From Rhodococcoides fascians A25f (GTDB lineage Bacteria; Actinomycetota; Actinomycetes; Mycobacteriales; Mycobacteriaceae), in the NCBI RefSeq assembly GCF_000760935.2, contig NZ_CP049744.1, positions 3,999,501 to 4,063,500 of the forward strand: a DNA stretch of 64,000 bases, read 5' to 3'. The notes below the pieces were generated by a model. It was not told the DNA's origin, did no database searches, and was given only the letters and a program-made list of their open reading frames with translations. A program made the position numbers and the translations under genes. Shown piece by piece: positions 32,347 to 35,408 of this stretch. Position 1 is the stretch's first letter. Every line of letters begins with the position of its first letter.

Positions 32347-32616
32347 TCAGGCCAACGCCAGAAACAGCTTTTCGAGTTCAGCCTCGGACATCGGCTCCTT
32401 ACCGTCCGCACTCTCACCCGTCATGCACTCACGCAGACCTGTCGCCACGATCTTGAATCCAGCTTTGTCCAGTGCACGCGAGACAGCAGCGAGCTGGGTG
32501 ACGACGTCCTTGCAATCGCGACCGTTCTCGATCATCCCGATGACGCCGGCAAGCTGACCGTGTGCGCGCTTGAGTCGGTTGAGTACCAGTGCGATGCTGT
32601 CTTCGTCGCCGATCAT
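32347..32616 (-). CDS. CsoR/RcnR-family (DUF156) repressor lacking the copper His
   Basis: An 89-residue all-helical repressor of the CsoR family ([20 protein letters not shown] at the N-terminus). Metal- or thiol-sensing positions: C35 in NGRDCKDVV and C64 in TGLRECM are kept, but the residue where copper sensors have His (four before the second Cys) is G60. This two-Cys, no-His pattern resembles CstR-type persulfide sensors more than copper-sensing CsoR. ATG 32616. Third gene of an MMPL-DUF302-repressor unit; a 16-bp G/C-rich operator-like palindrome lies 38 bases upstream. Confidence 0.88.
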
Positions 32617-32653
32617 GTCGATCCCCTCGATGGTGGTGGTGTCGAACTCGATG

Positions 32654-32669
32654 GTACCCCCGGGGGCAT
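32654..32669. promoter_or_regulatory. CsoR-type operator upstream of the repressor gene
   Basis: A 16-bp near-palindrome GTACCCCCGGGGGCAT between the DUF302 stop and the repressor start. It has the same architecture (xTAC, four bases, GGGG, GxAT) as the sites upstream of the MMPL gene, supporting autoregulation. Confidence 0.65.
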
Positions 32670-33088
32670 CAGGCAGGGTTGGATCCACGCCCGCCCAGAG
32701 CAGCGATGGCCGCCTTCAGCCTGGTCGTCGCTTCCGCGGCGACCGAGGCCAATTCCGGCTCGCCGGTGACCTCGACCATGATGGCCGGGTTCATCGCCTC
32801 GACGATCACCGATCCCGGTGCCGCCGTGTCGTCACGCACGATCACGTTGCACGGCAGCAGCAACCCGATCTGCTTCATGACACCGACCGCACGGTGCGCC
32901 AGCCCGGGGTTGCACGCACCGAGAATCATGTAGCGCTCCATGTCCTCGCCGAGCTTCGCTTTGAGAGTCGCCTGCATATCGATCTCGGTGAGAACTCCGA
33001 AACCCTGTTCCGACAGCGCCTTTTTCGTGCTGTCGATCGCGGTGTCGAAATCGGTGTCGGTCAGCGTGGTGGACAGTGCGATGTTCAT
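32669..33088 (-). CDS. DUF302-family protein
   Basis: A 139-residue soluble protein of the DUF302 family, which is common beside thiol, metal and sulfur genes but has no proven reaction. Features: the N-terminal sheet/helix [20 protein letters not shown], an acidic-aromatic core ([20 protein letters not shown]), and a single pair of cysteines, one in ILGACNPG and one in LLLPCNVIV, consistent with ligand or thiol binding. ATG 33088 has GAGGAG upstream. Middle gene of the MMPL-DUF302-CsoR-like unit; 41 bases after the transporter gene. A role in handling the transported or sensed thiol/metal is inferred from context only. Confidence 0.85.
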
Positions 33089-33129
33089 GGTGTCTCCTCG
33101 AAAGCTGTTGTTCGGTGGGAGTTGTTGAT

Positions 33130-35283
33130 TCAGTGAGAAAAGCGGATGGACGGCAACGCGGCACGCAGCCATGCCGGCGACCACCACGCGCCGTGTCCGG
33201 TCAGCCGTAGCAGGACCGGAAGCAGCACGAGTCGAACCAGGAACGCGTCGAGCAGTACCGCAACGCCGAGGATGATGCCCATCTCCTTCGGGGGCAGCGG
33301 ATCCGACAGTGCGAATGTGAAGAACACTGCCACCATCACCGCTGCGGCGGCAAAGATGACTCGTCCCGAGTGAGCCAAGCCGTCGACCTGGGCCACCTTG
33401 GAATCACCGGTGCGCTCGTAGTGCTCCTTGGCGGTGGCCAGCAGAAAAACGGTGTAGTCCATGGCGATGGCGAAGATCATCGCGAAGAAGAACACCGGAC
33501 CCCAGCCGTCCAGGAATCCTTGCGGGGTGAAACCGAGCAGTGACGCGCCGTGGCCGTCCTGGAAGATCAACTTGGCGACGCCGAAGGCTGCGGCAGTGGA
33601 CAGCAGGCTCACCAGCGTGCCGAGCAGTGCGATCAGCGGGGCCTGCAGTGCCACCAGAAGCAGCACGAAACCGAGGACCAGGATGATCCCGACGACGATC
33701 GGCAGGTAATCGTTCAATGCCTGCTGCAGGTCGAGGTTCTCCGCGGGCGCTCCTCCGACGAGCGCGGAGTCGGGCAGAGCGGCGCGCAGATCGTCGAGAA
33801 TCGAGCCCATCGCCTCGTCGGACGGATCGACCGACGGAATTGCCTGCAGCAGTGCATATCCCGATCCATCGGTCGCACCCTGCGGCGGAGTCACCATCGA
33901 GATCCCCTCGACTCGAGCTGCCGCCTCAGCGGTGCCGACAGCATCCGCCTCGGGCACGACGATCTGCAGCGAACCCGGTGCACCCGGGCCGAACTGGGCC
34001 TGCACCAGCTCGTAGCCCTGCCGCACCGGTGCATCCTCCGGCACCACGGCGATGGACGGCATCGCGACCTTCAAACCGAGCACCGGGAGTGCCAGGGCGA
34101 TCAGAATTCCCACGGAGACAACGGCGAACGGCCACGGGTGCTTGTGCAACAACTCACCCCATGCTGCGAACTTCGGGGATCGATGCTCCTGACGCTTGGC
34201 GTACGGCAACGATGCGGCGTTGACCTTGGGTCCGAGCGCCCCCAATGCCGCAGGCAGCAGTGTCATCGTCGCCAGCAACACGAAGGCGACGGCCAGCATG
34301 ATCCCGACAGCCATGGTGCGCACCGCGGGCGCGGGGACGAGCAGCACAGCGGACAGACTCACCAACACCGTCAGACCGGACAGTACGACGGCTTTGCCTG
34401 CGGTGTCCATTGTTTCGGCCACAGCAGCCCTGGGGTCGGCGTGACGCAGCGCGTCGCGGAATCGAGCGACGATGAAGAGGGCGTAGTCGATCCCCAGCGC
34501 GAGGGCGAACATCATCGCGAAATTCATGGCCCACACCGAGATGGGCGTGACGCCGTTGAGCAGAACGAGACCACCCGCGGACGCAACGAGTCCGGCGACG
34601 GTGAGCAGCAACGGCAAGCCTGCGGCGACGAGTGAGCCGAACGCGAGCACCATGATCGCCAATGTGACCGGCCAGGAGAACAATTCGGCTTGGATCATCG
34701 CGTCGTGGTTCGCCTTGTTGAAGTCCGACCACAGTGCCGACGAGCCGGTGGGATACACCTCGATTCCGTCGCCCGAGAGCCCGGTCAACCGCTCCTTCAC
34801 ATCATCGACGGCCTTCACCATCTCGTCGGTCGTGCCGTTCGCCCCGGCGATGACGATGCCGGTTCGGCCGTCCGGACTGATCGTCATACCCGGTTGCGGC
34901 GCAACGACATCCCCGAACCTGGCGTCACCGGCGAACACGGCGGATACGTCGGTGATCACTGCCTGAACGGCGGGATCGGTGATGGACGCCGCGTCGGAGT
35001 GGACGACCACCTGCACCGCCGCAGAGGAATTACCGCCGAAATGCTGCTGGGCCAATTCTCGAACCTGAACGGATTCGGATCCGTTCGCCTGCCACCCCGC
35101 TCCCGCCAGGGAAGTGAAGACCGAGGGCGCAAACGAACCGAGGCCGATCAACGCGATGAGCCACACGCCGAATACCCAACGGCGATGAGCCACCATCGAA
35201 GCACCCGCACGGCCGAGTAGGCCTGGCCCACTCGCGGGCAGGTCATCAGGTGAACGAAGAGTTTCGGCATCGCGCAGCGACAT
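33130..35283 (-). CDS. MMPL-family RND transporter
   Basis: A 717-residue membrane transporter of the MMPL/RND superfamily: 12 predicted helices in two halves, each with a large extracytoplasmic loop after its first helix. Typical segments: MVAHRRWVFGVWLIALIGLG (first helix), MFALALGIDYALFIVARFRD and MIFAIAMDYTVFLLATAKEHYE (the Asp-Tyr proton-relay pairs of TM4 and TM10). Likely exports a lipid or hydrophobic compound. ATG 35283 with AGGAG 5 bases upstream; the frame continues further up but runs through the operator array. Heads an operon with DUF302 and a CsoR-type repressor, so its expression is probably induced by what that repressor senses. Confidence 0.92.
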   Translation of the reverse strand: MSLRDAETLRSPDDLPASGPGLLGRAGASMVAHRRWVFGVWLIALIGLGSFAPSVFTSLAGAGWQANGSESVQVRELAQQHFGGNSSAAVQVVVHSDAASITDPAVQAVITDVSAVFAGDARFGDVVAPQPGMTISPDGRTGIVIAGANGTTDEMVKAVDDVKERLTGLSGDGIEVYPTGSSALWSDFNKANHDAMIQAELFSWPVTLAIMVLAFGSLVAAGLPLLLTVAGLVASAGGLVLLNGVTPISVWAMNFAMMFALALGIDYALFIVARFRDALRHADPRAAVAETMDTAGKAVVLSGLTVLVSLSAVLLVPAPAVRTMAVGIMLAVAFVLLATMTLLPAALGALGPKVNAASLPYAKRQEHRSPKFAAWGELLHKHPWPFAVVSVGILIALALPVLGLKVAMPSIAVVPEDAPVRQGYELVQAQFGPGAPGSLQIVVPEADAVGTAEAAARVEGISMVTPPQGATDGSGYALLQAIPSVDPSDEAMGSILDDLRAALPDSALVGGAPAENLDLQQALNDYLPIVVGIILVLGFVLLLVALQAPLIALLGTLVSLLSTAAAFGVAKLIFQDGHGASLLGFTPQGFLDGWGPVFFFAMIFAIAMDYTVFLLATAKEHYERTGDSKVAQVDGLAHSGRVIFAAAAVMVAVFFTFALSDPLPPKEMGIILGVAVLLDAFLVRLVLLPVLLRLTGHGAWWSPAWLRAALPSIRFSH

Positions 35284-35292
35284 GGTTCTCCT

Positions 35293-35408
35293 ATACGGGT
35301 GGGGGTATCGATCGGGGCAGAGGGAACCCCGAGCGACCGAACGTGCCCACCTTCGCATATACCCAAGGGGGTATGCAAGTACCCCTGGGGGTATCACCCC
35401 AGGGGTAC
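35293..35408 (-). promoter_or_regulatory. Array of CsoR/CstR-type operators upstream of MMPL operon
   Basis: At least four G/C-block sites within 116 bases: ATACGGGTGGGGGTAT (35293-35308), ATACCCAAGGGGGTAT (35359-35374), GTACCCCTGGGGGTAT (35379-35394) and CACCCCAGGGGTAC (35395-35408). The middle two are near-palindromes spaced 20 bp, two helical turns. The same 16-bp layout is found before the repressor gene at 32654. Shape fits CsoR/CstR-family operators (TACCCC..GGGGTA). Confidence 0.75.

What the first reader, a model, noticed from the sequence alone, without database searches (positions are those of the whole stretch)
32347..35408. MMPL transporter, DUF302 and CsoR-like repressor as one regulated unit with at least five operators
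Sites ATACCCAAGGGGGTAT and GTACCCCTGGGGGTAT (20 bp apart), with weaker copies at 35293 and 35395, lie before the MMPL gene; a fifth with the same layout lies before the repressor. The operator type is that of CsoR/CstR proteins, yet the transported cargo is presumably a lipid or hydrophobic compound. This suggests a thiol- or metal-responsive lipid/thiol export and DUF302 detoxification system.
Basis: partly seen in the sequence, partly recalled or inferred. Interest (0 to 1): 0.7.

Follow-up and report, generated by a model that had tools for sequence, protein, structure and literature searches.

The report
MMPL transporter in a persulfide-detox operon
In this actinobacterium and many of its relatives, a lipid-exporter-like membrane pump and a small two-cysteine protein appear to be switched on together with enzymes that remove toxic reactive sulfur, which suggests an export step in sulfur detoxification that deserves testing.

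Summary
The operators are real, and the three genes form one unit (minus strand: MMPL, DUF302, repressor). The repressor has two cysteines 29 residues apart, as in the sulfane-sulfur sensor ScCsoR, with Gly where copper CsoRs have His. Its operators have ScCsoR spacing (TAC-N8-GTA); the genome's copper-type csoR has TAC-N9-GTA. The only other exact pair in the genome lies between a probable persulfide dioxygenase gene and a TauE sulfite-exporter gene.

Nine of 40 genus loci and four annotated plasmids carry MMPL, DUF302, TauE, repressor and dioxygenase in one run. Of the 80 best MMPL relatives kept by a search with MMPL sequences, 71 have this repressor within 7 kb, 66 have DUF302, and 68 of 77 have an exact operator upstream (reversed control 0).

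Best reading: a CstR-type regulon in which an MmpL3-fold MMPL and a two-Cys DUF302 protein are standing parts of sulfane-sulfur detoxification. Regulon membership is well supported by sequence. The MMPL's cargo (hydrophobic sulfane sulfur, or a sulfur-modified lipid or thiol) is inference. I found no paper describing an MMPL in such a regulon (capped lists 7, 39).

The parts
33130..35283 (-). MMPL-family transporter (717 aa), MmpL3-like fold, Asp-Tyr pairs D266-Y267 and D609-Y610, no Cys
   Evidence: (PF03176)
32669..33088 (-). DUF302 protein (139 aa) with Cys59 and Cys80 invariant among 18 aligned relatives
   Evidence: (PF03625)
32347..32616 (-). CsoR/RcnR-family repressor of CstR/ScCsoR type (89 aa; two Cys 29 apart, Gly at the copper-His position)
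   Evidence: (PF02583)
35359..35374 (.). Operator 1, ATACCCAAGGGGGTAT (TAC-N8-GTA)
35379..35394 (.). Operator 2, GTACCCCTGGGGGTAT, 20 bp from operator 1
35393..35408 (.). Half-site overlapping operator 2, seen only in the close group
35293..35308 (.). Conserved leader site, coding strand ATACCCCCACCCGTAT (TAC-N8-GTA, single C tract), directly before the MMPL Shine-Dalgarno
32654..32669 (.). Operator before the repressor (coding strand ATGCCCCCGGGGGTAC), kept in 18 of 18 distinct genus rows

Best explanation
The unit is the MMPL branch of a CstR/ScCsoR-type sulfane-sulfur regulon. At low sulfane sulfur the repressor sits on the TAC-N8-GTA operators before MMPL, on the site before its own gene, and on the pair between the persulfide dioxygenase (PDO) and TauE genes elsewhere on the chromosome. 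When persulfide or polysulfide rises, one or both of its two cysteines are persulfidated, it lets go, and these genes are expressed. PDO (metallo-beta-lactamase plus rhodanese domains) oxidises persulfide to sulfite and TauE exports sulfite. DUF302, a small two-Cys protein, probably carries or reduces sulfane sulfur. The MMPL transporter, with an MmpL3-like fold and conserved Asp-Tyr pairs, probably exports a membrane-soluble product of sulfur stress (S8 or polysulfide, or a sulfur-modified lipid or thiol). Shown by sequence: gene set, operators, cysteine pattern, co-occurrence, second regulon site. Inferred: chemistry of sensing in this protein, the PDO reaction, the DUF302 role, the MMPL cargo.
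For: Repressor: at the copper-His position Gly in 67, Ser in 1 and unreadable in 4 of 72 rows, Gly in 73, Ser in 3, Gln in 1, unreadable in 4 of 81, Gly in 21, Asn in 1, unreadable in 1 of 23; no His in any readable row (rows chosen by likeness to the window's repressor). Own genome: two CsoR-family genes; the other has the C-H-C pattern (read) and a TAC-N9-GTA site just before it. ScCsoR binds ATACC-N6-GGTAT (TAC-N8-GTA) and needs Cys37 and Cys66, also 29 apart (PMC7533328, passages). S. lividans copper CsoR operators are TAC-N9-GTA (PMC3902906, passages). In 103 loci there are 149 N8 and 23 N9 sites, reversed controls 0 and 1. Second exact pair: between divergent PDO-like and TauE genes, L015. 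TauE and PDO in the same run as MMPL-DUF302-repressor: 9 of 40 genus loci; plasmids pBD2, pRHL3, pROB01 and one of strain D188, pRHL3 also with rhodanese, TusA and DsrE nearby. 80 MMPL relatives: repressor 71, DUF302 66, YgaP-like TM 53, PDO, SQR or TauE 19, exact operator upstream 68 of 77 against 0 for the reversed pattern. Class level: 31 loci, repressor 23, DUF302 16, PDO 11. By my pairing of the 19 matches, the genome has nine MMPL genes and only the window's lies at such a place.
Against: No binding or expression data. The PDO call rests on domain architecture: no NCBIfam model reached its cut-off for it. 9 of 80 MMPL relatives and 8 of 31 class loci lack the repressor nearby (some loci are cut by contig ends). 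In the window itself PDO and TauE are in trans, about 1 Mb away, and I did not test whether this genome has an SQR. Of 60 order-level DUF302 loci, 19 lack the repressor and 45 lack this MMPL, so DUF302 is also used without it. N9 sites occur too (23), a few near MMPL or PDO. One plasmid copy sits beside a cadmium gene and a P-type ATPase, so some metal link is possible. Only 7 of 31 class loci have an exact operator within 450 bp upstream of MMPL.
Confidence: 0.75

Rival explanations
1. Copper (or other metal) responsive unit: the repressor is a CsoR that senses Cu(I), and MMPL and DUF302 protect the envelope from metal.
For: Pfam family name and plasmid annotations say metal-sensitive; RicR is the best NCBIfam hit, though at 40.9 bits against a cut-off of 175; the pBD2 copy lies beside a P-type ATPase and a cadmium transporter.
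Against: No His at the copper position in any readable row; operator spacing mostly N8, not N9; partners in regulon and runs are PDO, TauE, SQR-like and rhodanese genes.
Confidence: 0.06
2. The regulon is sulfane-sulfur responsive, but the MMPL does not export sulfur: it moves an ordinary envelope lipid to repair or tighten the membrane under sulfide stress.
For: The MMPL fold is MmpL3-like (Foldseek E 1.9e-36 to 7nvh), and solved MMPLs are titled lipid or siderophore exporters.
Against: Found outside the order with PDO and TauE in the same run, so a mycolate-specific lipid is unlikely; the genetic tie is to sulfur genes.
Confidence: 0.35
3. MMPL exports a low-molecular-weight thiol derivative, such as a mycothiol persulfide or S-conjugate.
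For: Actinobacteria use mycothiol (recalled); S. [quoted passage not shown]
Against: Such conjugates are hydrophilic; no cargo evidence.
Confidence: 0.15
4. Co-location is passenger linkage: MMPL rides in a mobile sulfur or metal island without a role in it.
For: Plasmid copies are common (44 plasmid records with a match).
Against: The window copy and 7 genus loci keep the unit in another neighbourhood, with KatG, Fur and MarR; exact operators lie before MMPL in 68 of 77; the leader site is conserved; the association holds in several families.
Confidence: 0.06

Closest known systems
ScCsoR sulfane-sulfur circuit of Streptomyces coelicolor (PMC7533328, passages read)
   Same: Repressor type with two Cys 29 apart, 16-bp operator ATACC-N6-GGTAT, two sites in the pdo promoter, PDO and TauE as targets, site at its own promoter
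   Different: That circuit has four genes (csoR, rhodanese, pdo, tauE); no MMPL, DUF302 or YgaP-like TM protein in the passages read
CstR / cst operon of Staphylococcus aureus (PMC5480029, passages read) and YrkD of Bacillus licheniformis (PMC9918477, passages read)
   Same: CsoR-like dithiol repressor of sulfur oxidation genes (tauE, cstA, cstB, sqr; sqr and pdo)
   Different: No MMPL or DUF302 in the passages shown; different phylum
SUL module of Antarctic Arthrobacter plasmids (PMC6305408, passages read)
   Same: CsoR-family regulator, sulfur dioxygenase, rhodaneses, TauE and a DUF302 protein together
   Different: Its extra transporter is MFS; the MMPL of that paper is in another module; annotation only
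DUF302 in sox clusters (PMC5037610, PMC11034169, passages read) and a DUF302 gene similar to one in the Synechocystis sqr1 plasmid operon (PMC5061849, passage read)
   Same: DUF302 beside sulfur oxidation genes
   Different: Other sulfur systems; no CstR-type repressor in the passages read
MmpL3, trehalose monomycolate exporter (PDB 7nvh, 6ajf and others)
   Same: Fold and core size; Asp-Tyr pairs (those of MmpL3 recalled)
   Different: About 26% identity over the fold match; different gene neighbourhood; the window's subfamily also occurs outside the order

Membership tests
CsoR/RcnR family (PF02583) | Pfam domain above gathering score | tested here: met
   81.1 bits against 22.8
Copper-sensing CsoR | Cys-His-Cys ligand set | tested here: not met
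   Gly at the His position in the window and in 67 of 72 rows, Ser in 1, unreadable in 4; the genome's other CsoR-family protein keeps His
Copper-sensing CsoR | TAC-N9-GTA type 2 operator, copper genes as targets | tested here: not met
   Window sites are N8; the second target pair is PDO-like/TauE
CstR / ScCsoR sulfane-sulfur repressor | Two cysteines 29 residues apart, no copper His | tested here: met
   same spacing as Cys37/Cys66 of ScCsoR
CstR / ScCsoR sulfane-sulfur repressor | Operator ATACC-N6-GGTAT, often paired | tested here: met
   Operator 1 fits; operator 2 has G for the first A; paired
CstR / ScCsoR sulfane-sulfur repressor | Regulon contains PDO, TauE or SQR | tested here: met
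   TauE above its Pfam cut-off; PDO by domain architecture only; relatives
CstR / ScCsoR sulfane-sulfur repressor | Release from DNA by polysulfide | not testable with these tools
   Needs purified protein
MMPL family (PF03176) | Domain, RND/MMPL fold, Asp-Tyr pairs in the membrane | tested here: met
   233 bits against 20.5; Foldseek to MmpL3; D266-Y267 and D609-Y610 invariant in 14
MMPL family (PF03176) | Exports a lipid or hydrophobic compound | not testable with these tools
   No cargo data
DUF302 (PF03625) | Domain and fold | tested here: met
   79.6 bits against 23; Foldseek to 1j3m and 1q9u, TM 0.84 and 0.86 by query length

The most novel reading that the evidence does not exclude
The MMPL is a dedicated exporter of zero-valent sulfur: it takes membrane-dissolved S8 or polysulfide, handled by the two-Cys DUF302 protein and the YgaP-like TM protein, and pumps it out with the proton gradient, so that these bacteria have a further route, besides oxidation by PDO and sulfite export by TauE, to clear sulfane sulfur.
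Probability: 0.3. Interest if true: 0.85.

Novelty: new variant of a known kind. Interest (0 to 1): 0.6.

Why it matters
In the passages I read, CstR-type responses consist of oxidation plus sulfite (or thiosulfate) efflux. A conserved, operator-linked MMPL subfamily in that regulon, in many relatives of this genus and in other families of the class, points to an unstudied transport step, gives a domain of unknown function a concrete setting, and offers a plasmid-borne MMPL in laboratory strains whose cargo can be looked for directly. The N8 against N9 operator spacing may also help to tell sulfane-sulfur from copper regulons of this repressor family in actinobacterial genomes.

Tried and rejected
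Metal reading: rejected as best explanation on ligand residues, operator spacing and partner genes. Lipid export on the strength of the MMPL name: kept as a rival, not proven. MMPL clade test: 46 CstR-type MMPLs fall on one side of a branch from 8 own paralogues, but support is only 86/57 and the tool warned of long branches; one paralogue row (own_L322) was read in a wrong frame. Weak support only. Cysteine content: 121 of 131 distinct MMPLs have no Cys and 10 have one; but 4 of the 7 other own paralogues also have only one, so this is a mild signature (own_L322 dropped). Alignment A3: its last row (meant to be the own copper-type csoR) was taken in a wrong frame and is meaningless; no count uses it. 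DUF302 structure: good model (pLDDT 93.5), but I could not measure the Cys59-Cys80 distance, so no disulfide claim; beyond two DUF302 entries Foldseek gave 7tj1 chains, whose title names a fluoride transporter (not followed). One search was an empty script.

Literature, all ten searches. 'mmpl' with 'sulfane sulfur': 3 papers, complete list, seen as listing and start of abstract only. 'mmpl' as a whole word with 'persulfide': 1 paper, in which they belong to different modules. Searches (20 of 35 listed; 25 of 1,052 listed) are capped. Only open-licence PMC papers are held. Fakhoury et al. 2021 on CsoR-family persulfide sensors was not held; seen only as a reference.

Counting notes; 40 genus loci = 39 of the 54 strong repressor matches other than the window, plus one weak match (L115); 60 regions fetched, not all matches; a repressor counted at 50% identity or more, MMPL at 45% or more; 31 of the 40 matches (cut-off E 1e-170); the 9 left out are in the window's family. 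These sets hold many close relatives and are not independent.
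Full report
What is there. On the minus strand lie, in order, an MMPL gene (33130-35283), a DUF302 gene (32669-33088) and a CsoR-family repressor gene (32347-32616), followed by a Fur-family ORF (15 bp on, if its longest form is taken) and katG, all in the same direction. The five sites of the finding are present. Two, 35359 and 35379, match exactly and start 20 bp apart. 35393-35408 overlaps the second and makes it nearly palindromic. 35293 lies directly before the Shine-Dalgarno of MMPL. 32654 lies about 37 bp before the ATG of the repressor. 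The relaxed pattern has 15 hits against a mean of 3.69 in shuffles. In the whole genome the exact core TACCCNNNGGGGTA occurs at five sites in three places.

Are the sites conserved? Upstream stretches of 22 genus loci (18 distinct) were aligned. The 35293 leader element is exact in 14 of 18, a recognisable operator pair within 150 bp is present in 14 of 18, and the site before the repressor is kept in 18 of 18 with small changes of the middle. In 37 genus genomes the exact core is found in 33; over all 37 there are 209 strand hits against 53 for the reversed pattern (summed; palindromic sites count twice).

What the repressor is. It has Cys-x28-Cys, and Gly where copper CsoRs have His. Near the 80 MMPL relatives, 67 of 72 repressor rows have Gly, 1 Ser, 4 could not be read; elsewhere single rows have Gln or Asn. 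The genome has one other CsoR-family gene, far away, with the His. Operator spacing separates the two: the 103 genus and order loci hold 149 TAC-N8-GTA sites (reversed control 0) and 23 N9 sites (control 1), while the copper-type csoR of this genome has an N9 site just before it. ScCsoR of Streptomyces coelicolor, shown to let go of DNA with polysulfide, binds ATACC-N6-GGTAT, which is N8, and needs two cysteines with the same spacing (PMC7533328, passages). Copper CsoR operators of S. lividans are N9 (PMC3902906, passages). The separation is not perfect: some N9 sites lie near MMPL or PDO.

What else it controls. The second exact pair in this genome lies between two divergent genes: one for a metallo-beta-lactamase-rhodanese protein of persulfide-dioxygenase type and one for a TauE/SafE exporter. 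The dioxygenase call rests on architecture; no NCBIfam model reached its cut-off. PDO and TauE are targets of ScCsoR, and the S. aureus cst operon has the same kinds of genes (PMC5480029, passages). A third place, on the 176-kb contig, has one exact and one imperfect site without a clear target.

Co-occurrence. The repressor is found in 34 of 37 genus genomes, once as a part at a contig end. Of 40 fetched genus loci, 29 have MMPL, DUF302 and repressor together; 9 of these also have TauE and a PDO in the same run. In 60 order-level loci picked by DUF302, 41 have the repressor, 15 this MMPL, 15 PDO, SQR or TauE, and 43 have exact operators: 90 sites against 0 for the reversed pattern. In 80 named loci found with MMPL sequences (Rhodococcus, Rhodococcoides, Nocardia, Williamsia, Gordonia, Prescottella and others) the repressor is near in 71, DUF302 in 66, YgaP-like TM in 53, PDO, SQR or TauE in 19, and an exact operator lies within 450 bp upstream of MMPL in 68 of 77 (control 0). 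In 31 class-level loci, 30 of them from other families, the repressor is near in 23, DUF302 in 16, PDO in 11, and an exact operator upstream of MMPL in 7; five have PDO-TauE-MMPL-YgaP-like TM in one direction and DUF302-repressor in the other (L289, L291, L293, L295, L299). The sets overlap in part and hold many close relatives. Within the genome, by my pairing of the matches, nine MMPL genes exist and only the window's lies at such a place.

Annotated plasmids show the same. pBD2, pROB01, pRHL3 and a plasmid of R. fascians D188 carry MMPL, YgaP-like TM or DUF2892, DUF302, TauE, regulator and an MBL-fold gene in one run; pRHL3 adds rhodanese directly before MMPL, and thioredoxin, TusA and DsrE nearby. 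The regulator is annotated there only as metal-sensitive.

The proteins. MMPL: 717 aa, MmpL3-like by sequence and by fold (model pLDDT 84.6; Foldseek E 1.9e-36 to 7nvh), with both Asp-Tyr pairs invariant in 14 relatives and at most one cysteine in 131 distinct relatives. DUF302: the solved relatives 1j3m and 1q9u, called hypothetical or uncharacterised, keep the two cysteines; Cys59 and Cys80 are invariant in 18. DUF302 genes are reported beside sulfur genes elsewhere (PMC5037610, PMC5061849, PMC11034169, PMC6305408, passages).

How it most likely works. The repressor blocks the MMPL unit, its own gene and PDO/TauE; sulfane sulfur releases it. PDO and TauE remove sulfur as sulfite. DUF302 probably handles sulfane sulfur with its two thiols. 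MMPL probably exports a membrane-soluble sulfur species or sulfur-modified molecule. The first part rests on sequence, operators and a characterised homologous circuit; the last two steps are inference.

Novelty. The regulator type and the PDO/TauE regulon are known. The MMPL, with its leader site and the frequent YgaP-like TM and DUF302 partners, as a standing member of this regulon is what I did not find in print (complete lists; capped lists; open-licence PMC only). I file it as a new variant of a known kind.

Noticed in passing
window 29506-32331: A Fur-family gene and katG follow the repressor in the same direction; this order is kept in 7 other genus loci (L077, L078, L082-L085, L116), so a peroxide system may share transcripts with the sulfur unit.
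   Followed up: no
L016:8980-9060 (G000:C2:18005-18038): A third operator pair (one exact, one imperfect), much like the MMPL promoter, on the 176-kb contig with no MMPL behind it; nearest genes are a UDG-family gene on one side and a sigma/anti-sigma-like pair on the other. It may be a relic promoter.
   Followed up: partly
L016:10518-11546: A lipoprotein-like ORF with two DUF302 matches, lying before sigma- and anti-sigma-like ORFs; unlike the window's DUF302 it shows no cysteine pair.
   Followed up: no
L098:2223 and L337 (pBD2): Plasmid-type copies of the sulfur unit can sit next to metal genes: a cadmium transporter and P-type ATPase in pBD2, and in L098 a TAC-N9-GTA site before a His-rich 731-aa ORF that looks like a metal ATPase (not tested).
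   Followed up: partly
L105:1302-9847: A compact version: operators, MMPL, repressor, a divergent SQR-like gene, a PDO-like gene and a partial TauE-like match.
   Followed up: partly
L226: A Kitasatospora arboriphila record carries a copy 80% identical to the window's MMPL, laid out as in Williamsia loci; contamination or recent transfer should be checked.
   Followed up: no
window 26673-29432: Two ORFs that by eye look like a molybdenum-type oxidoreductase large subunit and its 2Fe-2S small subunit; no search was made.
   Followed up: no
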